Positions 13,475 through 64,000 of a DNA stretch of 64,000 nt are shown here, one piece after another (within the stretch, counting starts at the first letter, position 1; each line of letters begins with the position of its first letter). The notes under the pieces are model-generated. The model was given only the letters and a program-made list of their open reading frames with translations, searched no databases and was not told where the DNA came from. This DNA is from Pedobacter sp. JY14-1 (GTDB lineage Bacteria > Bacteroidota > Bacteroidia > Sphingobacteriales > Sphingobacteriaceae): contig NZ_JARJHU010000003.1 in the NCBI RefSeq assembly GCF_029269825.1, positions 472,475-536,474 on the forward strand, in the 5' to 3' direction. The translations under genes and the position numbers were made by a program.

Positions 13475-13523
13475 ATGGCCATCGGCCGGGTTTGTCACCA
13501 TGCCTGGCCCCGCTTGGTACTGC

Positions 13524-13559
13524 CTTTCTCCACAAAAGGTACCTCCTTTGTGGAGAAAG
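13524..13559. terminator. intergenic hairpin between convergent genes
   Basis: CTTTCTCCACAAA and its near-perfect complement CTTTGTGGAGAAAG form a stem of about 14 bp with a short loop. It lies between two convergent beta-barrel genes. There is no U-tract on either side, so it may be a bidirectional terminator-like structure or an mRNA-stabilising 3' stem. Confidence 0.45.
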
Positions 13560-13580
13560 ACAGCCTGAAGGGTGGAGCGA

Positions 13581-14315: not shown

Positions 14316-14439
14316 AAAGGTTGTATTTGTGTGTATCTAAATATAATAAACTGAACTGATATTTTTCTTCCGGTCACAAAAACGTGATGTAGCAAATGAA
14401 AGGATAATGTTAAATTCCCGGTCAAATTGAAACCACTGT

Positions 14440-15483
14440 ATGAAACACCCAATAATCATCAGGCTTGCTACAGTTTGGCTTTTGTTCAGCGGCGCACAGA
14501 CCGTCCGCGCACAAGCAGAAAAAGATACCTGGATGCTGACTTATTTCCGGCAGCGTTATCCCACGCGTATTGAGATTGACAAACAGGGCAAGGTCGTTGA
14601 AGTGCCTTTGCCGGATCCGATGCAGATCGAGCAATTGCATATTGCCTTGTCTGACGACGGACGTCACTGGAAACCCCTGAACGGTAACAAGCCGATATGG
14701 GACCGGCACATGCGCGACCAGTATATCCATAAGGGGCCTGATGGCCTTTGGCGCCTTGTAGCGACGGGGGGCGGGGGCGGTGCGGAGGCACGCCGGGAAA
14801 AAGGGCCAAGCTGTACTTATGCGACTTCCGAAGACCTGATCCACTGGAAGTTTGAGAAGTACCTGTACCTGATGAAAGATGTAAGGGACGAATCGGGTGC
14901 CTTTGTGAGGAACATCTGGGCGCCGGAGTTTTTTTATGACGAGGATACGAAGGAATACCTGCTGCTCTGGTCTTCTACCTTTAAGGAGGCCGGCTGGATG
15001 GAAAGCCGGCTCTGGTACTGTAAGACTAAGGACTGGCAGACCTTTACCCCGGCAAAGGTGCTGTTCGCGCCTCCATACTCGGTTATCGACGGTACATTAA
15101 TGAAGCATAAGGGAACTTATTACCTTTTTCATAAAGAAGAGGAGTTCGGGGCCAGGACAGGTGAACGCAGGGCCATACGCCTGGCTACTTCCAGGAACCC
15201 CGAAGGACCCTATGAGGTCTACAATGGCCCGATGAACAAAGGCCAGCTGGTGCCGACCATTACTGAGGGGCCGAGCGTGATGCCCGATCCGGTTAAAAAA
15301 GGCTGGCTGCTGCTGTATGATTACCCTATGGCAGACCGGTACGGCATATCCTCGTCACCGGACCTCCTTCACTGGAAGATCGAAAAGGACATTGCCATGC
15401 CACCTGATGCGCGGCACGGCAGTGTCTCTAAGCTGAGCAAGGCAGAGGCAAAGGCCCTTCAGGAAGCCTTTCCCGGCGAATAG
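14440..15483 (+). CDS. GH43-like glycoside hydrolase, secreted
   Basis: 347 aa with a signal peptide (about 1-24). The mature protein is a single five-bladed propeller-like domain. The three acidic positions expected for GH43 can be placed: an Asp in HMRDQYIHKGPDG, an Asp in SVIDGTLMKHKG, and a Glu in TEGPSVMPDP. WAPEFFYDEDTKEYLLLW is also typical. It resembles the N-terminal module of the double GH43 gene at 18547, so it probably acts on arabinose- or galactose-containing side chains. It is separated from the arabinose locus by pckA and the decarboxylase gene. Confidence 0.75.
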   Translation: MKHPIIIRLATVWLLFSGAQTVRAQAEKDTWMLTYFRQRYPTRIEIDKQGKVVEVPLPDPMQIEQLHIALSDDGRHWKPLNGNKPIWDRHMRDQYIHKGPDGLWRLVATGGGGGAEARREKGPSCTYATSEDLIHWKFEKYLYLMKDVRDESGAFVRNIWAPEFFYDEDTKEYLLLWSSTFKEAGWMESRLWYCKTKDWQTFTPAKVLFAPPYSVIDGTLMKHKGTYYLFHKEEEFGARTGERRAIRLATSRNPEGPYEVYNGPMNKGQLVPTITEGPSVMPDPVKKGWLLLYDYPMADRYGISSSPDLLHWKIEKDIAMPPDARHGSVSKLSKAEAKALQEAFPGE

Positions 15484-15499
15484 CATCGGGCTTCAGGAC

Positions 15500-17137
15500 T
15501 TATAACATGCTGGTATATTTGATCAGGGGCAGTGCGCTGCTCAGGTCGGGCATTGACGGATCATTGATCTGTTTGTAATTGACCAGGAATGCCTCTGCGA
15601 GCTCAGAAGCCTTGAGGTCGTAACCTGCAGTATCGGTCCAGGTATTGCGCGGGTTCAATACATTGTCGGGAACACCGGGACAGGAAACCGGCATCTGCAG
15701 ACCGAAGAAAGGATCGGCTACATAAGCTTCCTTAGCCAGGCTACCGTCCAGCGCCGCCCGGACCATGGCGCGGGTATAACTCAGTTTGATCCGCTGCCCG
15801 GTGCCGTAAGCCCCCCCGGTCCAGCCGGTATTGACCAGCCAGACATTTACATGCTGTTCCTTCAGCTTTTCGCCTAGCATAATGGCATACCTGGAAGGGT
15901 GAAGCGGAAGGAAGGCCTTCCCGAAGCAGGCCGAAAAGGTCAGCTGCGGTTCGGTGATCCCGGTTTCCGTGCCTGCTACCTTAGCCGTGTAACCGCTCAG
16001 GAAATGGAACATCGCCTGTTCCGTGGTAAGCCTGGAAATTGGCGGTAATACCCCGCAGGCATCGGCAGTAAGGAAGAAGATGTTCCCGGGAGTTGACGAC
16101 ACGGAAGGCAGTAATGCATTGTCTACAAAGTCCAGGGGGTAGGCCACACGGGTATTTTCTGTTTTGCTGATGTTATCGAAATCTACCTTGCTGGTGCCGG
16201 AAAAAGGGCATACATTTTCCAGCAGGGCGCCCGGCCGGATGGCATGGTAGATCTCCGGTTCTTTCTCTTCGCTCAGCCCGACGCATTTGGCATAGCAGCC
16301 GCCCTCAAAATTGAAGATGCCCTCTGCGGTCCAGCCATGCTCGTCGTCACCGATCAGCCTGCGGCCTGCGTCGGCAGATAAGGTGGTCTTGCCTGTACCG
16401 GAAAGGCCGAAGAAAATTGCGGTATCGCCTTCCTGACCTGCATTGGCTGAGCAGTGCATGGGCAATACATGGTGGTTTTCAGGGAGCAGAAAATTCAGCA
16501 CGGAAAAGATACCTTTCTTAATCTCCCCGGTGTAACCGGTGCCGCCGATCAGTATCATTTTTTTACTGAAGCTAATGATGGTAAAATTACCCTGGCGGGT
16601 ACCGTCGGTCTTTGGATCGGCCTGGAAGGAAGGCACGGCGATAATGGTCCAGGCCTCCTTCATGTCGTTGCCTTCCTCCCTTAATCTGAGTCCTTCGTAA
16701 TCGGTATACCTCAGGAACAAGTTATGCGCGAACAGGTTCTGGTAAGCGGTTTCAGTAATGACGCGTACCGGCAGGCGGTAGGCTTCATGTGCACAGGCAT
16801 AGCAGTCGCGCACGTAAAACGGCTTTTCGTTCAGCGTAGCAATCATACGGCCAAGCAGACGGTCAAAATGCGCTGCCTCAAAGGGGATATTGATCTCACC
16901 CCAGTCTACCCTGCGGGCGGTGATGTCGTCACGGACGATGAAGCGGTCTTTGGGGGAGCGTCCGGTAAAGGTGCCGGTATCTACAGCAACTGCGTTTTTA
17001 TCGGTAATCCAGCCTTCGGGTTTGTCCGGATCAGTGATCGCGGCTACCAGTTCGCTGACATTCAGCTGGTATAATGCCTTTTGCTGATCAAGTCCGTGTC
17101 CGGAAAGATCGGGTTGGAACATAGACACTTTGTCCAT
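15500..17137 (-). CDS. pckA: phosphoenolpyruvate carboxykinase (ATP)
   Basis: 545 aa, normal for ATP-dependent PEPCK, which converts oxaloacetate and ATP to PEP and CO2 in gluconeogenesis. The P-loop GLSGTGKTTLSAD lies at about 242-254, followed by RRLIGDDEHGW with the metal-binding Asp pair. FPCSANAG-type (MHCSANAG) and GWTGGAYGTGQRI motifs are present. The frame opens 11 codons earlier, but the Met at 17137 (MDKVSMFQPDLSG) gives the usual N-terminus. It is a standalone housekeeping gene. Confidence 0.95.
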   Translation of the reverse strand: MDKVSMFQPDLSGHGLDQQKALYQLNVSELVAAITDPDKPEGWITDKNAVAVDTGTFTGRSPKDRFIVRDDITARRVDWGEINIPFEAAHFDRLLGRMIATLNEKPFYVRDCYACAHEAYRLPVRVITETAYQNLFAHNLFLRYTDYEGLRLREEGNDMKEAWTIIAVPSFQADPKTDGTRQGNFTIISFSKKMILIGGTGYTGEIKKGIFSVLNFLLPENHHVLPMHCSANAGQEGDTAIFFGLSGTGKTTLSADAGRRLIGDDEHGWTAEGIFNFEGGCYAKCVGLSEEKEPEIYHAIRPGALLENVCPFSGTSKVDFDNISKTENTRVAYPLDFVDNALLPSVSSTPGNIFFLTADACGVLPPISRLTTEQAMFHFLSGYTAKVAGTETGITEPQLTFSACFGKAFLPLHPSRYAIMLGEKLKEQHVNVWLVNTGWTGGAYGTGQRIKLSYTRAMVRAALDGSLAKEAYVADPFFGLQMPVSCPGVPDNVLNPRNTWTDTAGYDLKASELAEAFLVNYKQINDPSMPDLSSALPLIKYTSML

Positions 17138-51361: not shown

Positions 51362-52837
51362 TCATCGCGATTCCTTCAGGGCCCGGGCGAAAGTCTGCAG
51401 TTCGTTTGCATTCAATGACGCAAAGCCAAATCTTACGCCGTTGACATGATCGTTGTATCGGAAAACACTGCCGTCGTTCAAATAAATCCCTCTGGAACCC
51501 ATTCTTCCGGCGAGGTCGGGCACGGAATATCCGGGGTCAAACTTTGTCCAGACAGCCATACCTCCCTGCGGAGGTGTGAAGGTGACCAGGTCGCCCAGAC
51601 AGGCGGTCAGTACCGCGCAAAAGTCGTCGCGCCGCTTTCTGTACAGCTTTACAGATTTTCTCAGGTGTCGCTGCATCTCGCCATTATGGAATAGGTGGGC
51701 AACGGATTCTTCGAACAACACATCGCCACGGATTTCCAGCATCTGCTTCAGCCTGGCTGCCTGCCAAACAAAATCTTCACCGCCGATGAGGTAACCCAGA
51801 CGGACGGTGGGCGCCAATGTCTTAGAGATCGAGCCGACGTAAAGAACATATCCTTTGTGGTCTGCGCTGGCCAGGGGTAGTATAGGGGCGTTTTCATAGT
51901 GGAAATCATAGTCGTAGTCGTCTTCGATCACTGGCAGGTGGTAGCGGCGAATGAGGTCCAGGAGCTTCACCCGTCGCTCTGCACTTAGGGTAACCGTCGT
52001 TGGATGATGGTGATGCGGAATGATATAAAGGAGGTTCGGCTTTGATTGTTTGCAGATGTCCTCAATAGCGTCGACATCAATACCGTCCTGATCAACTTTA
52101 ACTCTGATCAGCTTTGCGCCCAACTGCCCAAAAAGCCTGTCCACCAGGACGTAGTTCGGATCCCCTACGATCACCGAATCACCTGGACGCAGGATCATGC
52201 TGGCAGCAACAGAAATCGCAAGTTGTGCCCCATGCGTGACCAGAACTTGTTCGGGGCTGATGTGCAAGGCCCTGGTCCTGGACAGGAATAACGCGAGTTC
52301 AGTTCTCAATGTTTCGCTGCCGGAAGTACTGCCGGTCAACAGTCTGGCATGGAGGCCGGTTTTTTGTGAAAGATACTTGTACCGGTCGATGATCAGGTCT
52401 AAGGGGGCTAATCTGGCATCTGGATAACCATCATTGATCATCAGCTGATAGGGTTTCAACTCCCTGGTAACAGGTTGACGCAGGGCGATCTGCTTGTAGA
52501 AGTTCTCCTGTTCAGTGGTGGTCTGTTGTGCTGAAGGAACAGCTTCAAAAGTCTTAGGCCTGGTCAGCGGCAGGCTCATGGAAACAAAATTGCCTTTCCT
52601 CCCGATCCCTTCCAGCCAGCCCTGGATTTGCAATTCTTCATAAGCTGCAACTACTGTGGTGCGGTTAAGTTTCACCATTGATGCCATGTCGCGACTTGGT
52701 GGTAACTGGTATCCGGGCCTGATTTGTCCATTTTTTATCAGGTCGATCAAAGCATTTGCAAGCTGCCTGTATATTGGAGTTGCAGATTGCCTGTCGATGG
52801 TAATGAGTGTGCCGAAGGGAAGTGTCTGGGCTGTCAT
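51362..52837 (-). CDS. MocR/PdxR-family regulator (GntR wHTH plus aminotransferase fold)
   Basis: 491 aa. An N-terminal GntR-type winged helix (about 15-85: ALIDLIKNGQIRPGYQLPPS, LNRTTVVAAYEELQIQGWL) is joined to a fold-I aminotransferase domain. The PLP lysine is in VGSISKTLAPTVRLGYL, with YDYDFHYENAPILPL nearby. MocR proteins bind PLP and regulate vitamin B6, GABA or taurine genes. A candidate operator dyad lies upstream at 52908. Confidence 0.9.
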   Translation of the reverse strand: MTAQTLPFGTLITIDRQSATPIYRQLANALIDLIKNGQIRPGYQLPPSRDMASMVKLNRTTVVAAYEELQIQGWLEGIGRKGNFVSMSLPLTRPKTFEAVPSAQQTTTEQENFYKQIALRQPVTRELKPYQLMINDGYPDARLAPLDLIIDRYKYLSQKTGLHARLLTGSTSGSETLRTELALFLSRTRALHISPEQVLVTHGAQLAISVAASMILRPGDSVIVGDPNYVLVDRLFGQLGAKLIRVKVDQDGIDVDAIEDICKQSKPNLLYIIPHHHHPTTVTLSAERRVKLLDLIRRYHLPVIEDDYDYDFHYENAPILPLASADHKGYVLYVGSISKTLAPTVRLGYLIGGEDFVWQAARLKQMLEIRGDVLFEESVAHLFHNGEMQRHLRKSVKLYRKRRDDFCAVLTACLGDLVTFTPPQGGMAVWTKFDPGYSVPDLAGRMGSRGIYLNDGSVFRYNDHVNGVRFGFASLNANELQTFARALKESR

Positions 52838-52907
52838 TCGGTATAATTTTACGAAAAATCACAGGTTTGGCAAATTGGTGGTTTCCCTTTAAAGCTGAAA
52901 GCAGCAG

Positions 52908-52924
52908 CATTTTCATTGAAAATG
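52908..52924. promoter_or_regulatory. dyad upstream of the MocR regulator gene
   Basis: CATTTTC-ATT-GAAAATG, perfect 7-bp arms with a 3-nt loop, in the upstream region of the MocR gene. ACATTTTCGG at 52936-52945 repeats one arm. It may be an autoregulatory site. The stretch 52838-53065 otherwise holds no gene I can support. Confidence 0.35.
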
Positions 52925-53065
52925 TGTCAGATTGTACATTTTCGGGCTCTCGTCATCGCGAGAATGCGCAGCTTTTGTATTAGTATCAAATATCGTTGAT
53001 AATACCGAGTATTCGGGACTTTTTTGTAGATATACTTCATTTATCAATATTCTCAATTATGAATT

Positions 53066-53536
53066 ATGAAAGAAGCATATTTTCTAAGAGGAGGGATTAA
53101 TGTGGGATGTTTTAGACAGTTCGGATATCGTTGCTGGGATGCCATTGGTAAAACGCTTAACCTTTTGGAAAGCAAAATGGCTTTTTTCCCCAAGGAAGCA
53201 AACAACCAATTCGATGACCGGCAAATGTTTATACGTTACCAGATTATGATATCAGATGAACAGTAAATATTTATAAATTACTACCTTGAAGTACTTAATT
53301 TCGATTACCCTGCTTCAAAAAGAGACTTTCTTAAAGCATATAATGAACGGATATCACATTCGCTGAATTTACACAGGGGAGTTGAAAAATCTATGAAAAG
53401 TACCGCTGGTCTGCTGAACGGGGCAATGAGTTTTTGGGTTACTATATAAGAAATATTGAAACACTGGCCGGAATTAAATGAAGAAGGCTATCTGGCAAAA
53501 GTTGAAGCATTAAAGATTAACTTAATGGAATGCTAA
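53066..53536 (+). pseudogene. decayed gene with two in-frame stops at the island edge
   Basis: One reading frame (157 codons) from ATG at 53066 to TAA at 53534-53536 keeps coding-like sequence but is interrupted by TAA at 53264-53266 and again at 53447-53449. The three parts read well: FFPKEANNQFDDRQMFIRYQ, then YLEVLNFDYPASKRDFLKAY with HSLNLHRGVEKS, then HWPELNEEGYLAKVEALKIN. No frame shift is needed. I do not recognise the family. Between 53537 and 53629 nothing is seen. Confidence 0.5.
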
Positions 53537-53629
53537 ATATTTTCCTGTTCTTATGGCGGACAGCAAGAGATTCATGTTTTGCAGAAGTTCAACTTCGGTA
53601 GCCAGATCCCAACTTTTATAGTTAAGGAA

Positions 53630-54412
53630 TCAGGACCTGGCTTCAACTGCTTTAGAAAATAAATATGCTATATGTCTCCTTGCATTCTCAATACTTTCGT
53701 TAGCGCATCCTGAATAAACTGAATCATAATTTTGCGGTTTTTTATTTGATCTCCACGTCCCACAGTGGAAATGCGCAGCATATTTTCCAAAGTGACAAGA
53801 AATTTCATGGTGTTGTTGACTTTCGCAATATCGATCATCGTTTGTCAAAAAAACTGTATTTGGAAACGTCTTTTTGGTAGCATGATATACATCAGTCATT
53901 AAACCTGGGCCTGTTGTTTCTAAAATGTCATTCTCACCAACTACGACGTTGCTAGAGCGCAAAATAGCTTCATGCAAATAATATAGCCAGAATAAATGAC
54001 CCGCATTCCCACCAAACATATAATTGGCAACTCTCAGTGCATGTTTGTCGCCGTAGAGTTTTAAATCTTCCTGACTTAGTGTTTTTTCTTCTCCTAGAAC
54101 CAGATCGTAAGGAAGCAATGCATCCAAATTGTTGTACAAATACATATCCATATCTAAGTAAAAGCCTCCAAATAGATATACTAATAGCACTCTTAGTATG
54201 TCTGCTTTCTGTACAGTATGAGTGTAGCTGTTATACCAATCAAAAAGCTCAGGGCAATTGACATGAATAATTTGTGACGCTTCATCCTCACCATATGTAT
54301 TGATCTGCCAGTCGGGATGATAGTCGTGAATGCGTTTCACACATTTTGTAAATATCTCTGGTAGTACTTCGTCTTTGTTTAAGAAAATTAGATGAATAAT
54401 TTTCGCTGCCAT
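53630..54412 (-). CDS. GT32-like (DXD) glycosyltransferase
   Basis: 260 aa, no signal peptide. IPKIIHLIF-type start (KIIHLIFLNKD), then KADILRVLLVYLFGGFYLDM with the D87-x-D89 nucleotide-sugar motif. This is typical of the GT32/TcdA-like sugar transferase family, which uses UDP- or GDP-sugars. The acceptor is unknown; in this context it may be a peptide or cell-surface glycan. It is divergent from the next genes and visibly richer in A+T than genes before 52.8 kb. Confidence 0.85.
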   Translation of the reverse strand: MAAKIIHLIFLNKDEVLPEIFTKCVKRIHDYHPDWQINTYGEDEASQIIHVNCPELFDWYNSYTHTVQKADILRVLLVYLFGGFYLDMDMYLYNNLDALLPYDLVLGEEKTLSQEDLKLYGDKHALRVANYMFGGNAGHLFWLYYLHEAILRSSNVVVGENDILETTGPGLMTDVYHATKKTFPNTVFLTNDDRYCESQQHHEISCHFGKYAAHFHCGTWRSNKKPQNYDSVYSGCANESIENARRHIAYLFSKAVEARS

Positions 54413-54589
54413 AAGCGCATCGTCTTTTTAGTATATTAACTTTTTAATAATGCCTTTGAGATTCAAATGTCTTCGATATCCATACAGCCTTTTATGTTAT
54501 ATTTCACAACTCAATTTAGCTTTTATTTTCTTACATTTAGATATAATTTCACAATATTAAATCTATTTAAAATTTCATAAAACTAAGTT

Positions 54590-55546
54590 ATGTGTCTTTA
54601 TCATTTCATTTCAGGTGTAGTTATAAATATTGTGATATCTCATTTTGGGCCTTCTCAAGATCTACTGATAACCAAGTTAAGCCACTCTGTGATTAGCGAT
54701 AATAGAAAAGTGATCTTAACTAAATCAAAAGACACAGTAGTTGCAAGCAAATTTTCTGATAAATACGGGTCTATCATGATTAATGATGCATTACTATCAG
54801 ATTCAACATCGGCCGTAGTTACTCCACCGTCAGCGTTTAGATTTAATACGTTCTATCAAAAGTACCTCAACGCAGCTGGAATACCTATTATAGGGTCATC
54901 AAAGGTTTCAGATGATGCATTTTATAGAACAAGGAAGATCGTATTAATGATGCTAAGTAAAGTTCCATTATTGAAATTAACACTCATAAAAAACAATTCG
55001 CGCATTGCAATCATAGGAAGTAAAGAACTTACAAATGATTTGCCTGAATACTCTGACATCGATGATTACATTAATTCCCGGGCTCGTGGGCTTGGCGGAA
55101 ACAAAGAATTTCCCCTTACAAGCTGCGCCGAAGAAAATATTTTATGCTTTGAAAATGACCGATATAAAGGTGAAGATATACTGATCCATGAATTTGCTCA
55201 TACAATCCATGAAATTGGTCTCAATACATTAGTCCCGAAATTTTCAGAAAAGCTAGATAAAATCTACCACGCAGCAATCTCAAAAGGACTATGGGAAAGA
55301 ACCTATGCTAGCTCGAGTGCATCGGAATATTTTGCTGAAGGTGTTCAAAGCTGGTTTAATGTGAACAAAAATGAACAAACACCAAATGGTATTCATAATG
55401 ATGTCTGCACACAAGCTAAGCTGCGAAAATACGATCCTGCGCTATACGATCTAATAGCTAGTAATTTTCCAGACCCAGTATATGGACGAAGTTGCCATTG
55501 GACAGTTGGATTTTCAAAATGGGAAACGTTTTGGCGTTTTAGGTAA
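54590..55546 (+). CDS. HExxH zinc metallopeptidase-like protein
   Basis: 318 aa. The zinc motif HEFAH (200-204) lies in ILIHEFAHTIHEIG, and a Glu in SEYFAEGVQSWF (E246 or E250) is a good third ligand, as in gluzincins. The segment RARGLGGNKEFPLTSCAEEN before it looks like a substrate-pocket loop. C-terminal GIHNDVCTQAKLRKYDPALY follows. The N-terminus may be a weak secretion signal, or the true start may be elsewhere. It resembles a recurrent family of putative metalloproteases of unknown role; in this cluster it could process a peptide, though this is not shown. Confidence 0.65.
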   Translation: MCLYHFISGVVINIVISHFGPSQDLLITKLSHSVISDNRKVILTKSKDTVVASKFSDKYGSIMINDALLSDSTSAVVTPPSAFRFNTFYQKYLNAAGIPIIGSSKVSDDAFYRTRKIVLMMLSKVPLLKLTLIKNNSRIAIIGSKELTNDLPEYSDIDDYINSRARGLGGNKEFPLTSCAEENILCFENDRYKGEDILIHEFAHTIHEIGLNTLVPKFSEKLDKIYHAAISKGLWERTYASSSASEYFAEGVQSWFNVNKNEQTPNGIHNDVCTQAKLRKYDPALYDLIASNFPDPVYGRSCHWTVGFSKWETFWRFR

Positions 55547-55626
55547 TCATGTGGCTTTGTCATATTAGTGTCATCGTTGGTGATTTTAAACCTAAAGGCT
55601 TTTCTTGTGAATTTTTTTTCGTAAAT

Positions 55627-56187
55627 ATGTATATGAACCAAATATTAACACTCTCTTTTATAACCTTCATACATTGTTTTTCTTGCATAGAAAATCATGC
55701 TTATGGCCAAAGAAGTATCCAAAGAAATTTTCTTTTCACCTTTGACAGTCTTGATACATTTTCAAACGAACCTGATGATTGGAAAAAATTTGCAAATGGA
55801 TATGAAGTTAAGATTGTTCAGGACAAAAAGCATTTAGGCGAATCCCTATTACAAATATCCTCTATTAGTTCACGATTAGAAAAGGATTCCATTGCTTTCA
55901 TTGCGCGAAAAATCGACATTCCTATTGGGGCTAAAAAAGTTAAATTATCAGGATTTCTATCTAGCCACTCAGTTCAGGGACGCGCAGGCCTTTCTTTGAT
56001 AGTAAATGGTAAAGATAGCGTACTATTAAGTGATGAAATGAAAGCACGGGCGGTTAGAGGTAGTAGTCCTTGGAAGCAATATGATATCAAATTTAACATA
56101 CCCCGCATTGCAGAATCAGTAATGGTTGGAATCTATTTAATTGGATCTGGCACCATGTGGGCGGACAATCTGAAACTTATATTTTGA
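55627..56187 (+). CDS. secreted beta-sandwich protein of unknown function
   Basis: 186 aa. From the Met at 55627 there is a signal peptide (FITFIHCFSCIENHAYGQ). The mature part is a jelly-roll-like domain with AGLSLIVNGKDSVLL, SSPWKQYDIKFNIPRIAES and SGTMWADNLKLIF, similar to beta-sandwich domains next to carbohydrate-active or esterase proteins. The upstream part of the frame (from 55549) is not supported by composition. It follows the metallopeptidase-like gene in the same direction. Confidence 0.6.
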   Translation: MYMNQILTLSFITFIHCFSCIENHAYGQRSIQRNFLFTFDSLDTFSNEPDDWKKFANGYEVKIVQDKKHLGESLLQISSISSRLEKDSIAFIARKIDIPIGAKKVKLSGFLSSHSVQGRAGLSLIVNGKDSVLLSDEMKARAVRGSSPWKQYDIKFNIPRIAESVMVGIYLIGSGTMWADNLKLIF

Positions 56188-56260
56188 TGGTTACGACATC
56201 TTTTGATAATATTTTCTATACAAACTAACCAATAATTTCGAACATTATATAGCGCTCTCA

Positions 56261-56359
56261 ATGCTAACAGGCTATTGCACAATATTTTCTGTTGAATATA
56301 GTTTCATGACATTTTATCTCTATAAAGGAGAGAATTTTACTAGCTGTTTTTGTCTATGA
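56261..56359 (+). CDS. 32-codon Cys/Ser/Thr-containing short ORF overlapping the LLM start
   Basis: ATG at 56261 to TGA at 56357-56359, so its stop overlaps the ATG (56356) of the flavin-enzyme gene. The sequence has three Cys and several Ser/Thr and ends TSCFCL. It lacks a recognisable leader (no FNLD box, no GG site) and a good ribosome-binding site. It is listed as a weak candidate only, since a lanthipeptide precursor should be somewhere near. Confidence 0.15.
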   Translation: MLTGYCTIFSVEYSFMTFYLYKGENFTSCFCL

Positions 56360-57360
56360 AATTAAGTGTGCTAGATACTTTCAATTTGCGTAATGGTTTT
56401 TCTGCAAAAGATGCTGTAGATGACAGCGTGAAGTCAATTTGCCACGTTGAGCAATTAGGTTACTTTCGATACTGGGTTTCCGAACATCATAACACTTCTC
56501 TGACTGCTAGTTCAGCTCCAGAAATTTTGATTGGCTATCTAGCTTCAAAAACATCCAAAATACGAGTTGGATCAGGGTGCATTCTACTGCCCTATTACAG
56601 TTCACTAAAAGTTGCTGAATGCTTTAAGCAACTTGAGTTACTGTATCCAAATCGGATCGATTTGGGCGTAGGAAGGGCCTCAGGCTGTGATGAATTAACT
56701 TCATATTTCCTGAGTCAGAGTAGGAATAGTGAATTAGCTAGCTATCATGAAAAAATTTATGACTTAAAACACTTTCTTGACCAGACACACATCTCTGAAA
56801 GCGTGAAGTCGAAAATCAAAGTTGTGCCTCGCATTCCTAAAAGCCCTCCAATATGGATATTAGGATCTAGTATAAATAGCGCTAAACTAGCTTTGCAACT
56901 AGGAGTCAATTTCAGCTATGCACATTTTTTAAACCCTGCATCAACAGGAGAGGTGCTAACTTTTTTGAATAATTACTCGACAAATGTATCTGATCAGAAG
57001 TTTAGCTATTCTTTAGCTATAAGGATAATTTGCAGTGATAACAAAACACAACTCCGTCAAATGCTACATTATTTTGATTGGTACATCGTCCGTTCCGGCT
57101 CTAAACAAAAAAGTGATGGTCTATATAGAGCAAACTATAATTACCGATACAATGATCGTGAGAAGGCAGAAATACACTTAGCTAGAGAGAATACGCTGAT
57201 TGGTGCGCCGCATGAAATTAGATTAAAATTGTCCTCCCTAGTTGACTTCTCGAAAATCACTGAGTTAATTATTTCAATGTGCGTGTGTTCGCTTGATCAA
57301 AAGCTTTCTACCTACAGTCTATTAGCCCAAGAATTTAACCTCAAAGAAAATGAGCTTTAA
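56356..57360 (+). CDS. luciferase-like (LLM-class) flavin-dependent oxidoreductase
   Basis: 334 aa. A TIM-barrel bacterial luciferase-like protein with YWVSEHHNTSLTASSAPEI, RVGSGCILLPYYSSLKVAE and NRIDLGVGRASGCDE. These are typical of the MsnO8-type FMN/F420 subgroup. In RiPP clusters, LLM-type reductases can oxidise the peptide or reduce dehydroalanine to D-alanine; which of these applies is not known. An alternative TTG start lies two codons upstream. The last 11 nt overlap the next gene, so it begins the tight operon. Confidence 0.88.
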   Translation: MKLSVLDTFNLRNGFSAKDAVDDSVKSICHVEQLGYFRYWVSEHHNTSLTASSAPEILIGYLASKTSKIRVGSGCILLPYYSSLKVAECFKQLELLYPNRIDLGVGRASGCDELTSYFLSQSRNSELASYHEKIYDLKHFLDQTHISESVKSKIKVVPRIPKSPPIWILGSSINSAKLALQLGVNFSYAHFLNPASTGEVLTFLNNYSTNVSDQKFSYSLAIRIICSDNKTQLRQMLHYFDWYIVRSGSKQKSDGLYRANYNYRYNDREKAEIHLARENTLIGAPHEIRLKLSSLVDFSKITELIISMCVCSLDQKLSTYSLLAQEFNLKENEL

Positions 57361-58348
57361 AGTTTGCATTGCTACGACAATCAAGGGTTGTCCCGATAAT
57401 ATATTGGAAACTTGGGTATTATTTCATAAAACAATCGGTTTCGATCATTTTTTCCTCGTATACGACGATCCCGATGAGATCCCGAGTAAAGCTGCAAAAA
57501 GCTCGAACGTGACTACACTCCGGAAATCAGATTTTGATCAAGATTATTTAAATAGTCTTGATACTTATAAGAATTTGAAAGACTACACGGAATCAGATTT
57601 GATTGCCAGACAAGTAATAAACATGTCTAATGTGATAAAAATTGCTAGGGATGAAGGCTATGATTGGATTTTGCATATTGACGTAGATGAAATTTTCTGG
57701 TGTCGAAATTGGCAGAACGTTAAAAATCATTTTTATGACCTCCAGACCAACGGAATTGATTGCATTAACTATGTCAACTATGAGGCTATACCAAATTGCT
57801 TTGATGTAGAGAACTATTTTGAAGTAGTAACAACGTTTAAAAAAAATCAAAAACATCTTACACACATACAAAACACATTTCTTCAAGAAAACGGATGGAC
57901 TGCTTCAAATTATTTTAATTTCTATGGAAATGGAAAATCAGCTGCACGATTAACGCAAGATGTCCAGCCCGTTGGTCCTCACTATTTTTCCAACCATCGA
58001 GAGTTCACATCAGAATATTTCCCCGTTATTTTACACTATCCCATCTGCGGATTCCAAAACTTTTTTGACAAGTATAAAATACTGGGCAATTTTCCAGATC
58101 TGTGGTTGGGAACCTACGAAATAAAAAAGCTACTGCCGTTTCATTTAGCTTCCAGAGACGCTGTTAATAAGCATTCTTTGGAATACGCCATTGACTTCTA
58201 CAGACAGCGGGTATTGAAGGCGTTTGATAAGAATTTAAAAGAACTGATTGATATTGGGATAGTTTGCCAAATACGTGACGTTCAAGAGGTATTGTTTGCT
58301 TTAAAAAAGACTAAAAAGAATAAAAAAAGAATTCAACATGCGTCCTAA
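57350..58348 (+). CDS. GT92-like/GT2-like glycosyltransferase
   Basis: 332 aa. The N-terminus VCIATTIKGCPDNILETWVL is typical for glycosyltransferase family 2-like/92-like enzymes. The metal motif DVDE is at 111-114 in WILHIDVDEIFW. GKSAARLTQDVQPVGPHYF is another family block. A basic tail (KKTKKNKKRIQ) ends it. It is likely cytosolic. It starts before the LLM stop and overlaps the next gene by 11 nt. Confidence 0.85.
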   Translation: MSFKVCIATTIKGCPDNILETWVLFHKTIGFDHFFLVYDDPDEIPSKAAKSSNVTTLRKSDFDQDYLNSLDTYKNLKDYTESDLIARQVINMSNVIKIARDEGYDWILHIDVDEIFWCRNWQNVKNHFYDLQTNGIDCINYVNYEAIPNCFDVENYFEVVTTFKKNQKHLTHIQNTFLQENGWTASNYFNFYGNGKSAARLTQDVQPVGPHYFSNHREFTSEYFPVILHYPICGFQNFFDKYKILGNFPDLWLGTYEIKKLLPFHLASRDAVNKHSLEYAIDFYRQRVLKAFDKNLKELIDIGIVCQIRDVQEVLFALKKTKKNKKRIQHAS

Positions 58349-59435
58349 AATCTCATTCTGCACGGTCAGCATGAACAGGACCGAACATTTTAAGCAGACA
58401 TTTTTAAAAAACGTCTTAGACAATGTCAATTACCCTTATGTCGAATTTATCATTCTAGATTACAATTCCACTGACGGGCTAGGTGAATATGTCAGGGACT
58501 ATTTGCAGATGTATATTAAAACCGGAATTGTGAAGTATTATCACAATACGGAACCAATATTTTTCAATATGCCCCATGCCAAAAACATGGCTTTGAAACT
58601 AGCTGATGGAGATATTATTTGTTTGGTTGATGCCGATAATTATATAGGTAATGGCTTCGCAGCGTATGTTGCTAATAATCTCATTAAAAGTCAATTTCTA
58701 ACTACTATTTATAAACGTAAGCCTAGTACAAATAGTGACGTACTTGGTAGGATTTGTTTGTTCAAATCGGATTTTCACAGACTGAAAGGTTTTGACGAGG
58801 GTTTTAAGTACTATGGTTTAGAAGATCTAGATTTTGTGCAAAGGTTGGAAATTGCTGGTTGCTTTAGAAAAGTGATAAAAACCAACAAGTATCTAAAAGC
58901 TATATCCCATACAGCCGTAAAAAGGTTTGGCAATATGCAATTATTTAGTACTATCGCGGCCATCTTCGTTGGCCAGCAGACTCCTTTCAAATCAGCGTTA
59001 TATTTCTTTTTCAATACTGGTGAATGCTACCACGGTCTTGTGCTTGATAATGTAGCGACAAATATGACCAAGCTTAAACCACTTAGAAAAAGCCAAAGAC
59101 TCATTTCAAAGTATATCCTTTCGGAGGAAGACTGGAGTTTGAGTCATTGGTGTGAGAAACCTACCGGACTGTCAATCATAGAGGCAAATGTCGAAACTAG
59201 CTTATCGAACGCTACGCTGCAAGATTGCCAAAGCTTTTCTTATTGCGGCCAATATTTTAGAAGAATCGTCAATGACGGGATAAGGAACGATGCGCTATAT
59301 CTTTTCAGTGTACTACCCAATTTCAATAGGATGGTCAACAATAAGAATTCGTTGGTCGTCCAGGCTAACCCAAATACATATGGTTCAGGACATGTATATA
59401 AAAATTTTGATTACGGCTTGCATCTAAAAGTATAA
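58338..59435 (+). CDS. GT2/galactosyltransferase-type glycosyltransferase
   Basis: 365 aa. GT-A fold: ISFCTVSMNRTEHFKQTF, then DYNSTDGLGEYV, then DADN (98-101) in ICLVDADNYIG. GFKYYGLEDLDFVQRL is like the C-terminal Glyco_transf_7C galactosyltransferase motif. The last 120 residues are a separate part of unknown role. Two glycosyltransferases back to back in a lanB operon suggest that the product is glycosylated. Confidence 0.85.
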   Translation: MRPKISFCTVSMNRTEHFKQTFLKNVLDNVNYPYVEFIILDYNSTDGLGEYVRDYLQMYIKTGIVKYYHNTEPIFFNMPHAKNMALKLADGDIICLVDADNYIGNGFAAYVANNLIKSQFLTTIYKRKPSTNSDVLGRICLFKSDFHRLKGFDEGFKYYGLEDLDFVQRLEIAGCFRKVIKTNKYLKAISHTAVKRFGNMQLFSTIAAIFVGQQTPFKSALYFFFNTGECYHGLVLDNVATNMTKLKPLRKSQRLISKYILSEEDWSLSHWCEKPTGLSIIEANVETSLSNATLQDCQSFSYCGQYFRRIVNDGIRNDALYLFSVLPNFNRMVNNKNSLVVQANPNTYGSGHVYKNFDYGLHLKV

Positions 59436-59442
59436 AGTAAAA

Positions 59443-60294
59443 ATGAGCGATCTAAAAACAATATTCTTTTCGTTACATATCGACAGGTCACACGTGTCAC
59501 GTTTCCTTGAAAATAGCCTTAATGGGTTGTTGAGAGAACAAAAGTTCGGCAACGTGCAACTAATTGTACATTTTGATCATTTTAGGGGATATTATCTCGG
59601 CTTAACGCTACGGATTGAAGAGTCATTAAAACGCTTTTTCCTATCAGAACTTCAGCGAACTATCCATAATTTTTTTCAAACGATAAAAAAAACTAAAGGC
59701 CAATTTAACGATCAGTTATTTATGGATTTCACACCTGGTACAATTTTATATGGAAGCCATAGATTCGTTCCGTTTTTCCTAATCGATGGTATTAGATATC
59801 CAATCGAAAGTTTTTATTCCAGCTCGACTATACTAATTTCAAACATTAGGCTGCTAACAACTTCGACCAACTCAGCAATAACTCACTTGCTTTACTTCGC
59901 TATTGGACTTTTCTTAAGGTTAAATAATGGAGTTAAATTACTGATTTCAATACCTTCCACCTTGGCAAATAATAATCTTGCCTTCCTACAATCCTTCCAA
60001 ACCTATTATATAGATAACGAAGATTTATTCCGTAGAATATATGATAAAGCCCATAAGATAATTAAAGGGAAATCCAAAAAGAATGAATGGATTCAACATT
60101 GGATTGAAATGCACTTTCAATCGATAACAAATTATTTAAAAACCAATAATAAACTGGATGCTAGCGTTGAGTTTGCGAAAGTGCTAAAATACACACTTAC
60201 GCAGTTAGGCCGCTCCGATGACTACCTTTTATTGAATATCGTACTATCCAATCTCTTAAACCAGACCCCTAAACTTCAAAAAAATTTAATTTAA
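59443..60294 (+). CDS. unrecognised protein in the lanB operon, 283 aa
   Basis: No clear family. It starts 7 nt after the second glycosyltransferase and ends 7 nt before the DUF6065 gene. Residues 35-60 (FGNVQLIVHFDHFRGYYLGL) recall in position the RYYDDHHHIRFR block of the elimination-domain protein at 63647. This opens the possibility of a divergent LanB-like elimination or scaffold protein, but the likeness is weak and could be chance. Basic and Ile/Leu/Phe-rich, with no signal peptide. The function is unknown. Confidence 0.6.
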   Translation: MSDLKTIFFSLHIDRSHVSRFLENSLNGLLREQKFGNVQLIVHFDHFRGYYLGLTLRIEESLKRFFLSELQRTIHNFFQTIKKTKGQFNDQLFMDFTPGTILYGSHRFVPFFLIDGIRYPIESFYSSSTILISNIRLLTTSTNSAITHLLYFAIGLFLRLNNGVKLLISIPSTLANNNLAFLQSFQTYYIDNEDLFRRIYDKAHKIIKGKSKKNEWIQHWIEMHFQSITNYLKTNNKLDASVEFAKVLKYTLTQLGRSDDYLLLNIVLSNLLNQTPKLQKNLI

Positions 60295-60301
60295 TATACA
60301 C

Positions 60302-61030
60302 ATGAGTAAATTAACTGCTTATCGGCTCGCAGAATACGGAAAGATCGTAACGGGAAGTCCAAACCGAAACTGGATGGATTTAACAAACAGTAAAGTAGCA
60401 TATGGGTGCCTGCCATTGGTCATAGCTAACGAGCTAGGCTGGGATATACTTTGCGCAACCAACTTCAGAGCCATATGGAATGGACGTTTTTCACCAGACT
60501 CAATTCAAATCGAGTTCAAAGATGATGTTCCCGAGAATCATCAGGTTGTTAGTCATTTCGGAATGGGCATCCTCACGTTCCATCCTGGCTTTCTTTTTAA
60601 GACGGAACACGGTACAAACCTTCTTATAAATGGCACTCCCAATATTGTGAAAGATGGAATCCAAGCTCTTGATGCAGTTGTCGAAACTGATTGGCTGCCT
60701 ATGACTTTTACAATGAACTGGAAATTCACTAGAGAAAATATTTGGATTGAATTTCATAAAGGTGATCCAATTTGCAGAATCATGCCCTACAAAAGAGATT
60801 TTATTGAAACCCATGAGCCCGAGATCTTAGACATCAGAAGCGATGAAGGTGTGCATGGGGAATTCATAAAATGGAGTGAAGACAGAGCAAAGCATAATGA
60901 ATCACTTAAACAACCAAATCCTCCAAAAGCGATGGAAAAGGACTATTTCAAAGGAGTTCTAAAAGATGGGAGTAAAATAGAATATCACCAGAGAAAAATT
61001 GATTTAAAAAGTTTTGATGAAAAAAAATGA
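60302..61030 (+). CDS. DUF6065 family protein
   Basis: 242 aa. RNWMDLTNSKVAYGCLPLVI followed by GWDILCATNFRAIWNGRF is the DUF6065 signature as I remember it. Later CRIMPYKRDFIETHEPEI also fits. The family is often found next to biosynthetic enzymes, with no defined activity. No transmembrane segment or metal motif stands out. It overlaps the lanB gene by 17 nt, so both are translated together. Confidence 0.75.
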   Translation: MSKLTAYRLAEYGKIVTGSPNRNWMDLTNSKVAYGCLPLVIANELGWDILCATNFRAIWNGRFSPDSIQIEFKDDVPENHQVVSHFGMGILTFHPGFLFKTEHGTNLLINGTPNIVKDGIQALDAVVETDWLPMTFTMNWKFTRENIWIEFHKGDPICRIMPYKRDFIETHEPEILDIRSDEGVHGEFIKWSEDRAKHNESLKQPNPPKAMEKDYFKGVLKDGSKIEYHQRKIDLKSFDEKK

Positions 61031-63647
61031 GATTTTCTCTAGAGTAATGCTTCGTTCATCCGGACTTAGCAATGATTTTTATAAGTCTCAATTCGAACAT
61101 TTGAGGGGGCTGGATATAAAAGTTAAAGATTGTCTTGCTTTACAACGAGACTACTTGGATTACCAAAATAACTTATTGGCAGAAATGGAATTTTTGATTT
61201 CTAAGTTAAATGGCAAATCAAAAACTGAATTGATATCACTGAAAAGAAGTCTTCACGACAGCAAATTCAAAAATTTGAAGTTAGGACACCTGACAATTGA
61301 AAGTCAGAAAAGAATTCTTTTAGCACACCAGAAATATAACAATCTGAAGAAAATTGAGAAGCAGTTGACTACGACAATTAGTGTGGTAGCTACTTTTGAA
61401 GAAAACTCCCTTTTAAAATATTCCAGGCAATCAATGGAAATGCAAAAGTCACTGTTAATTGCATCTCCCACTTTACTGGAGTCAATAGCAAAATTTCCAG
61501 ATTTAAAAATAAAAAAGCAAAGACAAACCTTATACGGAATAACTAAATATTTTGCAAGAATGGCGTATAAAACGTCACCTTTCAGTTATTTTACGACAAC
61601 CCATCTAGTAGCTATAGAAGATCTGACTGAGGTGAAACCGCAATATGAAATCGAGTTCACAAGTGTCTACTCTTTAAATCGAGCTAAGTTTCTACATCTA
61701 ATGCACCTGATGAAAAGAAGCAAATTTTTTCGCAAGAGCATGCTTGTTGAACTGAACTCCACTGTAAGAAAGGACAAAGGAAAATATACGTACTATCATA
61801 CGTCTAATAACAGGGATTATTTCAATGATATGCAGCGAAATCCCTTATTAGACCATCTATTTAAACGTCTCGCTTATAATCCAGTGTCATTCAACAATTT
61901 GATTGATGAACTAAACCAAACGTTCTCTTCAACAGCACAGAATGAAAGTTTAACTGATTTGGTAATGCATTTAATTGATAATAATTATTTGGTTTTAAAT
62001 CATGGGTTAAACGTACTGAATACCGATTTTTTAAAGCACTTTGAAAATTTTGTCCTGCAGTGTGTTCAAGGGGAGGATCATTTATTACTTAAAGAAAATT
62101 TTGATCTATTGAAATCAAATCTAGTTTCAAAAGAAAAAATAGGCCAAGACTCTGGACCCTCATCGCTGAGAATCTCGAAAATAAAATCTGCTATTGATGC
62201 TTTATTTACCAGAATTTGCAAGCTGTCTTCTGACGGGATCGAAAATGATGAAATGATTGAGTATTTCTTAGCGCATAAACATGAAAATTTAGAGAATCTC
62301 ATATTTGAGGACGTCTATTCAAATCACAGTATCGAGTTGGACCAAAAAGCATTTAATGATTCGTTATCAGAGATAATGAATCTATTAAAGGAAATAGCAT
62401 TCTTGGATCTAAGACAGGACGATCAGTATAACTTTTTCAATATCATAAAAAGCCTTTTTCCCCGAAAAAAAACCATCAATCTACTGGACGCTTATAGAGC
62501 GTATTCCAATTACACAATTGCCAATCCCGAGTATGACAGAACATTCAATGTAAGAATGCTGGGAGCAGCAATGAATGAAATTGCTCGCGATAGTTTAGCC
62601 GTTGACCTTGAGAATTTCCAAGTTCCCTGGAGAGTACAACTAGATGATGCATTGATTAAAAAATTTAGAAATTTAAAGCCTTTATGGACTAAACCGGAGG
62701 ATAATAAACGAGAATCTAAATCTGTGTTCATGCAGTACTACAAGTCTGATGGAGAGTCCTACTTTGTATTGAATGGATTTGCGATTGGTTACGGTAAGTG
62801 GTTCAGCCGATTCTTAAATCATGATTCCACTGAAAACACAAAACTTTTGATAAATTTTAATTCCAGTCAAACCTCTAAAGATTATTTAAATATTGAAAAT
62901 GTCGACGCTACCTGTGGGAATGCAAATATTCACCCATTGTTGTTTGATCGAGAAATTTGCATACCAGGTGGTATTCAATCCAGTTCGACTATTGATACCC
63001 GAGTGTCATTAAAAGACCTTTCGATAAAAATCGGTGAAAGCAATCTCAAATTGTATCACGAGCCTACAGGCAAATTTATAAATGCGTTTGATTGTGGATT
63101 TTATTCAATAATGGGTAGGTCTTTGTTATTTAGGATTTTGGATTATTTTAATCCAGTAACAAATATTAGTCTATCCTACTTCACAGATTCGCTACTTCTC
63201 CATTATGATTACATGGAACACTTTTGCCACGTTAATCAAAACAGAATTCGGTTTAAAAGATTTCCCCGGTTAACATTTAAAAATATCGTACTTGAACGGG
63301 AGGTTTGGACCATCTATACTATAGATATCCTTGCGTTACTATCATCTCCGAACCCAATTATAGATATGGCAGGGCTTCGTGAAAAGATAGGTCTACCAAC
63401 TGAAGTATTTGTAATACTTTCAGAAATAAAACATGAAGGACAAGAAAGTACTTCCAACTCAAAGGACTACTACAAGCCGATGTACATAAATCTTACAAGT
63501 CCTTTATTCGTTTCCTACCTGGGAAAAATGCTTCGAAATTCCAAAAGTGAATTTGTTAACATCACCGAGATGCTACCAAATAACGATGATACAATTGCCT
63601 GTTCCTTAAATAATTCAACCGAAATATTAACTCAATTCGCATACTAA
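61014..63647 (+). CDS. lantibiotic dehydratase, glutamylation-domain protein (split LanB)
   Basis: 877 aa. RMAYKTSPFSYFTTTHLV corresponds to the Lant_dehydr_N signature (RMSxxPTPFGLF in NisB-like enzymes). Class I LanB enzymes use glutamyl-tRNA to glutamylate Ser/Thr of a peptide and then eliminate glutamate. This protein carries only the large glutamylation part; the elimination part is encoded separately by the next gene, which starts within its stop (TAATG). The start at 61014 could also be at 61017. No leader-binding RRE domain is evident by eye. It is rich in A+T. Confidence 0.9.
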   Translation: MMKKNEIFSRVMLRSSGLSNDFYKSQFEHLRGLDIKVKDCLALQRDYLDYQNNLLAEMEFLISKLNGKSKTELISLKRSLHDSKFKNLKLGHLTIESQKRILLAHQKYNNLKKIEKQLTTTISVVATFEENSLLKYSRQSMEMQKSLLIASPTLLESIAKFPDLKIKKQRQTLYGITKYFARMAYKTSPFSYFTTTHLVAIEDLTEVKPQYEIEFTSVYSLNRAKFLHLMHLMKRSKFFRKSMLVELNSTVRKDKGKYTYYHTSNNRDYFNDMQRNPLLDHLFKRLAYNPVSFNNLIDELNQTFSSTAQNESLTDLVMHLIDNNYLVLNHGLNVLNTDFLKHFENFVLQCVQGEDHLLLKENFDLLKSNLVSKEKIGQDSGPSSLRISKIKSAIDALFTRICKLSSDGIENDEMIEYFLAHKHENLENLIFEDVYSNHSIELDQKAFNDSLSEIMNLLKEIAFLDLRQDDQYNFFNIIKSLFPRKKTINLLDAYRAYSNYTIANPEYDRTFNVRMLGAAMNEIARDSLAVDLENFQVPWRVQLDDALIKKFRNLKPLWTKPEDNKRESKSVFMQYYKSDGESYFVLNGFAIGYGKWFSRFLNHDSTENTKLLINFNSSQTSKDYLNIENVDATCGNANIHPLLFDREICIPGGIQSSSTIDTRVSLKDLSIKIGESNLKLYHEPTGKFINAFDCGFYSIMGRSLLFRILDYFNPVTNISLSYFTDSLLLHYDYMEHFCHVNQNRIRFKRFPRLTFKNIVLEREVWTIYTIDILALLSSPNPIIDMAGLREKIGLPTEVFVILSEIKHEGQESTSNSKDYYKPMYINLTSPLFVSYLGKMLRNSKSEFVNITEMLPNNDDTIACSLNNSTEILTQFAY

Positions 63648-64000
63648 TGAAAAAATGGCTTAGTATATATATATATTATCGTATAGATCTAATTGCATTT
63701 GTACTCAAAGAGATTGAAGACTATGTAAAAACTGAAAAGATTAAACGTCTTAAGTTCTTTTATATCAGGTATTATGATGATCATCATCATATACGATTTA
63801 GAGTTTTGGCCGATACAACCTTACACGAAAGTATACTGGCAGATATCAAGAATCGCTTTAAAGCCTCATCAATGGTTAAGTCTTGTAAGATTGTCACTCA
63901 GGAGTACCTTCCTGAGGTAACAAGGTATGGCGGAACTACGGGCATAAAGTTAGCGGAGGACTTATTTCATAGTTCCTCTAAATGCTCATTTAAGCTTTTG
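63647..64000 (+). CDS. thiopeptide-type/SpaB C-terminal elimination-domain protein (partial, cut by window)
   Basis: 118 codons before the window ends; the gene continues beyond 64000. The start overlaps the lanB stop by one base. WLSIYIYYRIDLIAFVL, KFFYIRYYDDHHHIRFRV, QEYLPEVTRYGGTTGIKLAE and a final LFHSSS block match the elimination domain (thiopeptide-type bacteriocin biosynthesis domain), which removes glutamate from modified Ser/Thr. Together with the previous gene it makes one functional dehydratase. LanC, precursor, protease and transporter genes would be expected downstream. Confidence 0.92.
   Translation, partial: MKKWLSIYIYYRIDLIAFVLKEIEDYVKTEKIKRLKFFYIRYYDDHHHIRFRVLADTTLHESILADIKNRFKASSMVKSCKIVTQEYLPEVTRYGGTTGIKLAEDLFHSSSKCSFKLL

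What the first reader, a model, noticed from the sequence alone, without database searches (positions are those of the whole stretch)
56356..64000. Split-LanB RiPP operon with two glycosyltransferases, a luciferase-like enzyme and DUF6065
Seven genes overlap or lie within 8 nt of each other: LLM, GT, GT, unknown, DUF6065, LanB glutamylation protein and separate elimination protein. Seen: motifs of each and the overlaps. Known: LanB with an elimination domain makes dehydroamino acids in class I lanthipeptides and thiopeptides. Inference: the product is a glycosylated, possibly flavin-modified peptide from a Bacteroidota host. This gene combination is unfamiliar to me, and the operon is cut by the window, so the precursor is not seen.
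Basis: partly seen in the sequence, partly recalled or inferred. Interest (0 to 1): 0.9.

Follow-up and report, generated by a model that had tools for sequence, protein, structure and literature searches.

The report
Heavily tailored class I lanthipeptide operon
A complete gene cluster for a ring-bearing antibiotic-type peptide, probably decorated with sugars by several glycosyltransferases; its core machinery is of a known kind, while its set of decorating genes was not found in the related clusters examined.

Summary
In detail: seven codirectional genes from 56350 overlap or lie 7 nt apart. Reading on in the host genome completes the operon: separate elimination protein, LanC with intact zinc ligands, C39-peptidase exporter, HlyD, and a 107-aa precursor with a pinensin-like leader and a core of about 75 residues (7 Cys, 19 Ser/Thr, 14 Pro), then a GT32-type glycosyltransferase, a glycosyltransferase-like gene and an FkbM methyltransferase. 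The split LanB is ordinary: 18 of 18 related regions examined have it. Unusual is the tailoring block LLM-GT-GT-orphan-DUF6065, homologues of which were found in 0 of those 18. All lie in a ~20 kb island at ~36% GC; the flanks are mostly 43-52%. The orphan (59443) has no homologue in the genomes searched; weak, mixed evidence hints at a degenerate second LanB-elimination domain. A modest model of DUF6065 matches dUTPases; its homologues elsewhere are not beside RiPP genes. Verdict: a new variant of the pinensin-type class I lanthipeptide cluster, probably giving a glycosylated peptide. Chemistry, acceptors and the roles of DUF6065 and the orphan are inferred.

The parts
53630..54412 (-). Gly_transf_sug (GT32-type) glycosyltransferase at the left edge of the low-GC island; divergent; membership in the cluster uncertain
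   Evidence: Pfam PF04488 E 1.8e-12; GC 33-36%; DxD seen in FYLDMDMY
54590..55546 (+). putative zinc metallopeptidase (HEFAHTIHE seen); weak ATLF-type match below cut-off; role unknown, possibly unrelated
   Evidence: Pfam PF07737 E 0.0071, 16.5 bits vs 27.4 cut-off; PDB sequences: only chance-level antibody matches
55549..56187 (+). 212-aa protein without family; possibly unrelated
   Evidence: no family above cut-off; no match in 118 held loci
56356..57360 (+). luciferase-like flavin enzyme, MsnO8/YhbW-type; candidate dehydroamino-acid reductase or hydroxylase
   Evidence: PF00296 E 2.9e-26; TIGR03558 288.7 bits vs 166.95 cut-off; PDB 4us5 luciferase-like monooxygenase E 9.7e-42; no CofD (F420) match in the host genome
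57350..58348 (+). glycosyltransferase (PF13704), DxD in HIDVDEIF
   Evidence: E 9.8e-10; 2 of 294 other genomes of the class gave hits, both in frames with stops
58338..59435 (+). GT2 glycosyltransferase, DxD in LVDADN
   Evidence: PF00535 E 2.4e-11, PF02709 1.2e-7; SunS model only 13.7 bits vs 350 cut-off
59443..60294 (+). orphan 283-aa protein; possible degenerate paralogue of the LanB elimination domain
   Evidence: no family; only one spurious hit in 398 other family genomes and 144 other genus genomes, overlapping sets; none in plasmids or 118 held loci; profile tests weakly for, against
60302..61030 (+). DUF6065 protein; predicted beta-clip (dUTPase-like) core, function unknown
   Evidence: PF19541 E 1.1e-79; model and fold search
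61017..63647 (+). LanB glutamylation protein (no elimination domain)
   Evidence: PF04738 E 4.7e-20; residues 107-199 match PDB 6ec7 lantibiotic dehydratase E 3.1e-4; TSPFSxFT and other residues shared with 18 relatives, 18 otherwise invariant positions differ
63647..64000 (+). separate LanB elimination protein, cut by the window end; whole gene L002:7648-8496. Further genes beyond the window (L002 = window minus 55999): LanC L002:8483-10360; C39-ABC exporter 10370-12541; HlyD 12544-13833; precursor 13915-14238; GT32-type 14310-14999; GT-like (by eye) 15004-15633; FkbM methyltransferase 15748-16572
   Evidence: PF14028 E 3.1e-32, LANC_like 2.6e-39, Peptidase_C39 3.5e-30, Gly_transf_sug 1.1e-21, FkbM 6.3e-7; TIGR03891 96 bits vs 48.45; HlyD TIGR01843 31 bits, under its 208.65 cut-off

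Best explanation
A complete class I lanthipeptide cluster of the pinensin-leader, split-LanB kind, carried on a probably acquired low-GC island, with an added sugar-tailoring set. Likely course: LanB glutamylates Ser/Thr of the 107-aa precursor with Glu-tRNA, the separate elimination protein removes glutamate to give dehydroamino acids, the LanC with intact zinc ligands closes up to seven (methyl)lanthionine rings, the luciferase-like enzyme reduces (or oxidises) leftover residues, two to four glycosyltransferases put one or more sugars on the peptide (leftover Ser/Thr are the obvious acceptors) and the FkbM enzyme methylates a sugar; the C39 exporter with HlyD cuts the leader and exports the product. 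Shown: gene set, order, conserved motifs, precursor. Inferred: every chemical step, all acceptors, the leader cut (DG where most relatives have GG), and the roles of DUF6065 and the orphan.
For: Gene calls and domains; ten genes overlapping or at most 9 nt apart, precursor after 81 nt. Leader VSLEDFRLESFLTTPDPEFLKALRADG lines up with relatives' LSLEDLQLESFVTSIDSEVAMRLSGG. Elimination-protein residues invariant in 18 relatives are kept (H48, R50, R52, E90, R93, Y94, H257, N261, R262). LanC keeps C281, C334, H335. GC 33-40% from window ~53000 to L002 ~17000, mostly 43-52% outside. Two GTs, LLM, orphan and DUF6065 lie in the same closely packed run as LanB. No flippase, polymerase or nucleotide-sugar family appeared among the island proteins scanned.
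Against: The precursor leader scores 13.2 bits, under the 24-bit cut-off of NF038180, and lacks the double glycine. No PDB sequence relative for either GT of the block, no SunS-type match, no nucleotide-sugar genes. LanB differs at 18 positions invariant in 18 relatives, charged ones among them (E to V327, K to A503, E to P779). Nothing shows that the product is made.
Confidence: 0.68

Rival explanations
1. A lanthipeptide cluster whose product is not glycosylated; the glycosyltransferases make or modify a cell-surface glycan (for example to protect the producer) and are merely cotranscribed.
For: GT2, PF13704, GT32 and FkbM genes are typical of glycan loci (general knowledge); none is close to a known peptide glycosyltransferase (SunS model 13.7 bits vs 350; no PDB sequence match). 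The GT32-type and GT-like genes lie after the precursor.
Against: Two GT genes sit with 11-nt overlaps after the LLM, followed by orphan, DUF6065 and LanB in one packed run; no flippase, polymerase or nucleotide-sugar family among the island proteins scanned.
Confidence: 0.22
2. The elimination module makes something besides simple lanthionines: the orphan 283-aa protein is a second, altered elimination-fold enzyme (as pyridine synthases are in thiopeptides) that forms another link from dehydroresidues. Compatible with glycosylation, so not exclusive of the best explanation.
For: The orphan scores best against the elimination-protein profile among 155 proteins of 230-340 aa (0 of 154 others reach it); nearly the same length (283 vs 282 aa); PxxxxYG and F..SSS landmarks lined up. 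PMC7268733 (passages) notes extra elimination-domain homologues in class I clusters and suggests other chemistry.
Against: 6 of 400 shuffles of the orphan reach its score, 1 of 100; hhalign probability 0.3% and HMMER 1.1 bits for the best domain; AlphaFold model useless (pLDDT 39.4). The catalytic residues are not kept in that alignment.
Confidence: 0.1
3. A decaying or silent cluster: acquired island, no product.
For: Leader cut site departs from double glycine; an imperfect direct repeat (86 and 90% identity in two pieces) flanks a 28-kb region, with a gene remnant at the left edge.
Against: All fourteen ORFs from 56350 to the FkbM gene are open and motifs of the elimination protein and LanC are kept.
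Confidence: 0.08

Closest known systems
Pinensin-type class I lanthipeptide clusters (pinensins; Pedobacter lusitanus NL19 peptides)
   Same: Leader pattern, split LanB, LanC nearest to the LanM cyclase part (TIGR03897 167.8 bits, under its 304 cut-off), C39 exporter. Six precursors of related clusters score 35-44 bits on the pinensin leader model.
   Different: Own leader under that cut-off; long Pro/Cys-rich core; added LLM, GTs, orphan, DUF6065, FkbM.
Long-core relatives in genomes G155, G382 and G428 (unnamed)
   Same: Cys-rich precursors of 96-108 aa (G428: 97 and 72 aa); LanC zinc ligands kept in G155 and G382 (G428 not checked).
   Different: No homologue of LLM, the two GTs, orphan or DUF6065 in the G155 and G382 regions; none of LLM, GTs, orphan in the 16 kb of G428, DUF6065 there by eye only.
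Lanthipeptide-type clusters with glycosyltransferases in Bacteroidales (BGC3 with LanC, BGC9 with LanM, in PMC10352776)
   Same: A glycosyltransferase beside LanC- or LanM-type genes in this phylum, in BGC9 also a methyltransferase (passages).
   Different: LanM class II or radical-SAM clusters; that paper reports no LanB in Bacteroidales. Not compared at sequence level.
Glycosylated lanthipeptides (NAI-112, class III; cacaoidin, class V, recalled) and glycocins
   Same: Sugar on a ribosomal peptide from a cluster-borne glycosyltransferase (NAI-112 AplG, PMC12328550 passages).
   Different: Different class and enzymes; no SunS-type match here.
LanJC luciferase-like reductases (birimositide)
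   Same: PF00296 enzyme in a lanthipeptide cluster (PMC7268733 passages).
   Different: This one is MsnO8/YhbW-type and was not compared with a LanJC sequence.

Membership tests
Class I lanthipeptide cluster | LanB glutamylation and elimination activities encoded | tested here: met
   PF04738 and PF14028 over cut-off; elimination residues kept; LanB shares many but not all invariant residues
Class I lanthipeptide cluster | LanC cyclase with zinc ligands | tested here: met
   PF05147 E 2.6e-39; C281, C334, H335
Class I lanthipeptide cluster | precursor with leader and Cys/Ser/Thr core | tested here: met
   L002:13915-14238
Class I lanthipeptide cluster | (methyl)lanthionine in the product | not testable with these tools
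   needs mass spectrometry
Pinensin family (NF038180) | leader over the curated cut-off | tested here: not met
   13.2 bits vs 24; matches positions 1-16 of 28
Pinensin family (NF038180) | split LanB with separate elimination protein | tested here: met
   same in 18 of 18 related regions
LanJC reductase | reduces dehydroalanine in a lanthipeptide | not testable with these tools
   family PF00296 only
SunS-type peptide S-glycosyltransferase / glycocin | TIGR04195 over cut-off | tested here: not met
   13.7 bits vs 350 for the GT2 gene; the two GT-type genes beyond the window were not scanned with NCBIfam
LanB elimination domain (orphan 59443-60294) | profile match | tested here: inconclusive
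   no HMM/hhalign match; best of 155 in a global test but 6 of 400 shuffles reach it
dUTPase superfamily fold (DUF6065) | beta-clip fold | tested here: inconclusive
   model pLDDT 51.2; Foldseek best 2zdc_A E 1.7e-3; VIA 3tq4 Z 8.8, rmsd 2.8, 104 aligned, little above the 7-8 the tool calls usual for models without a clear match; sequence profiles do not connect

The most novel reading that the evidence does not exclude
The operon makes a long, proline-rich, multiply glycosylated and sugar-methylated class I lanthipeptide, with two proteins new to RiPP biosynthesis: a dUTPase-fold DUF6065 protein (a nucleotide- or nucleotide-sugar-handling partner of the glycosyltransferases) and a catalytically altered elimination-domain paralogue that guides or diverts dehydroresidues.
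Probability: 0.15. Interest if true: 0.75.

Novelty: new variant of a known kind. Interest (0 to 1): 0.5.

Why it matters
Class I lanthipeptides from this group of bacteria are little explored, and glycosylated lanthipeptides are few. This cluster offers a complete set of open genes to test whether pinensin-type peptides can be glycosylated, and gives DUF6065, a family named in no paper of the library searched, a biosynthetic context.

Tried and rejected
Orphan as LanB-elimination homologue: HMMER and hhalign found nothing of worth; the AlphaFold single-sequence model has pLDDT 39.4 and was not searched; kept only as a lead. Orphan homologues: family and genus (an overlapping set), plasmids, PDB sequences (one chance hit E 0.19), 118 held loci: none; the G061 hit lies in a frame with nine stops. 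Metagenome collections were not searchable.

DUF6065 as a RiPP marker: rejected. Of 395 genomes of the phylum 2 have it, the host and G492, where it sits beside NADH-dehydrogenase-like genes by eye; of 14 control genomes, Caulobacter. The three loci (L036 and L037 read by eye, L035 only through the phmmer scan) and two of the 63 plasmid records (61 Sinorhizobium) show no RiPP genes beside it; a third had no annotation. dUTPase link by sequence: profiles do not connect; the resemblance of VVETDW and KGDPICRI to dUTPase motifs 3 and 4 is recalled, not tested.

F420 for the LLM: no CofD match in the host genome, while the control genomes rang in 6 of 14, so FMN is likelier.

Metallopeptidase (54590): PDB search gave only antibody chance matches. 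tRNA: none in L002 or L003. Bacteroidota-type promoter pattern (recalled): no match in window 52801-64000 or L002. A second precursor copy in the genome: none (one chance hit E 0.18 with stops).

Papers: PMC7268733, PMC9576775, PMC10352776, PMC12328550 seen as passages only; all others as listings. Searches: glycosylated lanthipeptides with glycosyltransferase and Bacteroidota (one paper), pinensin with glycosyltransferase and LanB (three papers, two of them seen as passages), DUF6065 (none). A LanM cluster with a glycosyltransferase and a methyltransferase is reported for Bacteroidales (PMC10352776); no cluster of the present make-up in what I saw.
Full report
Observation. The seven genes stand as described. 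The window is G000:C3:472475-536474, so the operon could be followed: the elimination protein (282 aa), LanC (625 aa), C39-ABC exporter (723 aa), HlyD (429 aa), a 107-aa precursor, a GT32-type glycosyltransferase, a protein that looks glycosyltransferase-like by eye but has no Pfam family (209 aa from the ATG), and an FkbM methyltransferase follow on the same strand. The first ten genes overlap or lie at most 9 nt apart; the precursor follows after 81 nt, the GT32-type gene after 71 nt, FkbM after a gap of 114 nt.

Precursor. MKKKKVSLEDFRLESFLTTPDPEFLKALRADG, then a tail of 75 residues with 7 Cys, 12 Thr, 7 Ser and 14 Pro. Its leader aligns with those of related clusters, which pass the NCBIfam pinensin leader model with 35-44 bits (six of six peptides tested); its own score is 13.2, under the cut-off of 24, with only the first 16 of 28 positions matched. 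Of the seven relatives aligned, six have GG at the leader end and one KG; here the aligned place reads DG, so the cut site is a guess. The genome holds no second copy.

Relatives. LanB has a match in 44 of 399 family genomes, the host included; identity over the aligned stretches is 20-36%. I fetched 18 regions from 17 of the 43 other genomes, mostly the best matches. In 18 of 18, LanB, a separate elimination protein, LanC and a C39-ABC gene lie in the region (one LanC, in L054, in two ORFs); in 0 of 18 did LLM, either GT of the block, the orphan, DUF6065, GT32-type, GT-like or FkbM protein give a phmmer match at E 1e-3. Unrelated glycosyltransferases would not be seen by that scan. The split LanB is therefore normal here and also published (PMC7268733 passages). 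In 213 genomes drawn from the whole phylum, host included, only the host and G428 matched its LanC; G428 carries two small Cys-rich peptides with the same leader pattern (by eye).

Two kinds of LanC. Among 19 LanC rows the host, G382 (L055), G345 (L049) and G155 (L059) keep the two cysteine and the histidine ligands; 15 of 19 have WAHG and [CV][ST]G instead. Those 15 belong to the clusters with 63-aa precursors. The precursor of G345 was not seen. So the present cluster is of a branch with long cores and intact zinc ligands.

Enzyme residues. The elimination protein keeps the charged residues that are invariant in 18 relatives; four other invariant positions differ (P to D25, G to H46, L to F115, N to L267). 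LanB keeps TSPFSxFT and many others but differs at 18 otherwise invariant positions, charged ones among them; its identity to these relatives is 23-32%.

Tailoring block. LLM: TIGR03558 288.7 bits, nearest solved relative 4us5; of its many relatives in the genus the full-length listed ones are at most 37% identical. No F420 CofD match in the genome. GT PF13704: 2 of 294 other genomes of the class gave hits, both in frames with stops. DxD motifs are readable in the two GTs of the block, in the GT32-type gene after the precursor and in the one at 53630. DUF6065: 2 of 395 genomes of the phylum. A four-sequence AlphaFold model is modest (pLDDT 51.2; blocks of residues 41-170 between 51 and 83). 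Its 50 listed Foldseek rows are all dUTPases or dCTP deaminases, best E 1.7e-3, none under 1e-3; VIA-align gives 3tq4 Z 8.8, rmsd 2.8, 104 aligned, with 10 of 998 chains at Z 8 or more, and warns that a best Z of 7-8 is usual for models without a clear match. Profiles of 22 dUTPases and 5 DUF6065 proteins do not meet. I take the fold as likely and the function as open.

Orphan. No family and no credible homologue in what was searched. By length and, by eye, the order of strands and helices in its poor model it resembles the elimination protein. A semi-global profile test ranks it above 154 of 154 other proteins of 230-340 aa (z 3.3), but 6 of 400 shuffles of its own letters do as well, and standard tools see nothing. 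It is a lead, no more. If right, the catalytic H, R, E and HMxxNR residues are gone.

Setting. GC is 33-40% from window ~53000 to L002 ~17000; of the twelve 1-kb steps read outside, nine to the left run 39-52% and three to the right 43-45%. A stretch of about 640 bp at the left edge repeats, at 86 and 90% in two pieces, a stretch 28 kb downstream in the same orientation. With the rarity of the genes this speaks for acquisition of the island; no tRNA was found, and no integrase was noticed by eye, without a dedicated search.

Mechanism and verdict. The lanthipeptide core is well supported; the sugar tailoring is the best reading of three family-supported glycosyltransferase genes in line with the operon, one more by eye, one at the island's left edge on the other strand, and a methyltransferase, but it rests on linkage. 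Lanthipeptide-type clusters with a glycosyltransferase have been reported in Bacteroidales (PMC10352776 passages), so the pairing as such is not without precedent. No published cluster of this make-up was seen in the searches, which cover open papers only.

Noticed in passing
L039-L048, L050-L054 (LanC genes): 15 related clusters with 63-aa precursors ending in CTTV[IV]C have LanC proteins that lost two or three zinc ligands (WAHG, [CV][ST]G), 15 of 15; their LanC may not be a zinc cyclase. In L054 the LanC is in two ORFs.
   Followed up: partly
window 52974-53608 and L003:5373-6055: Imperfect direct repeat, 86 and 90% identical in two pieces, flanking 28 kb that holds the cluster and downstream defence-like genes; the left copy looks like a gene remnant.
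   Followed up: partly
L003:1841-3748: TIR, caspase (Peptidase_C14) and ThsB-TIR genes side by side, reminiscent of a caspase-type Thoeris defence system (the comparison is recalled).
   Followed up: partly
host genome: No dUTPase (PF00692) match in the host, nor in 3 others of the 41 genomes searched.
   Followed up: no
L114, L115: In two Sinorhizobium megaplasmids DUF6065 lies 9 nt after an autotransporter gene.
   Followed up: no
L126:41-334 and 2478-2696: G428 carries two Cys-rich peptides with pinensin-like leaders around a LanC gene, with ABC transporter-, HlyD- and subtilisin-like genes after them (by eye).
   Followed up: no
window 54590-55546: Metallopeptidase-like gene with HEFAHTIHE just upstream, in an island whose precursor core has Pro-Pro-Pro runs; a link is speculation.
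   Followed up: no
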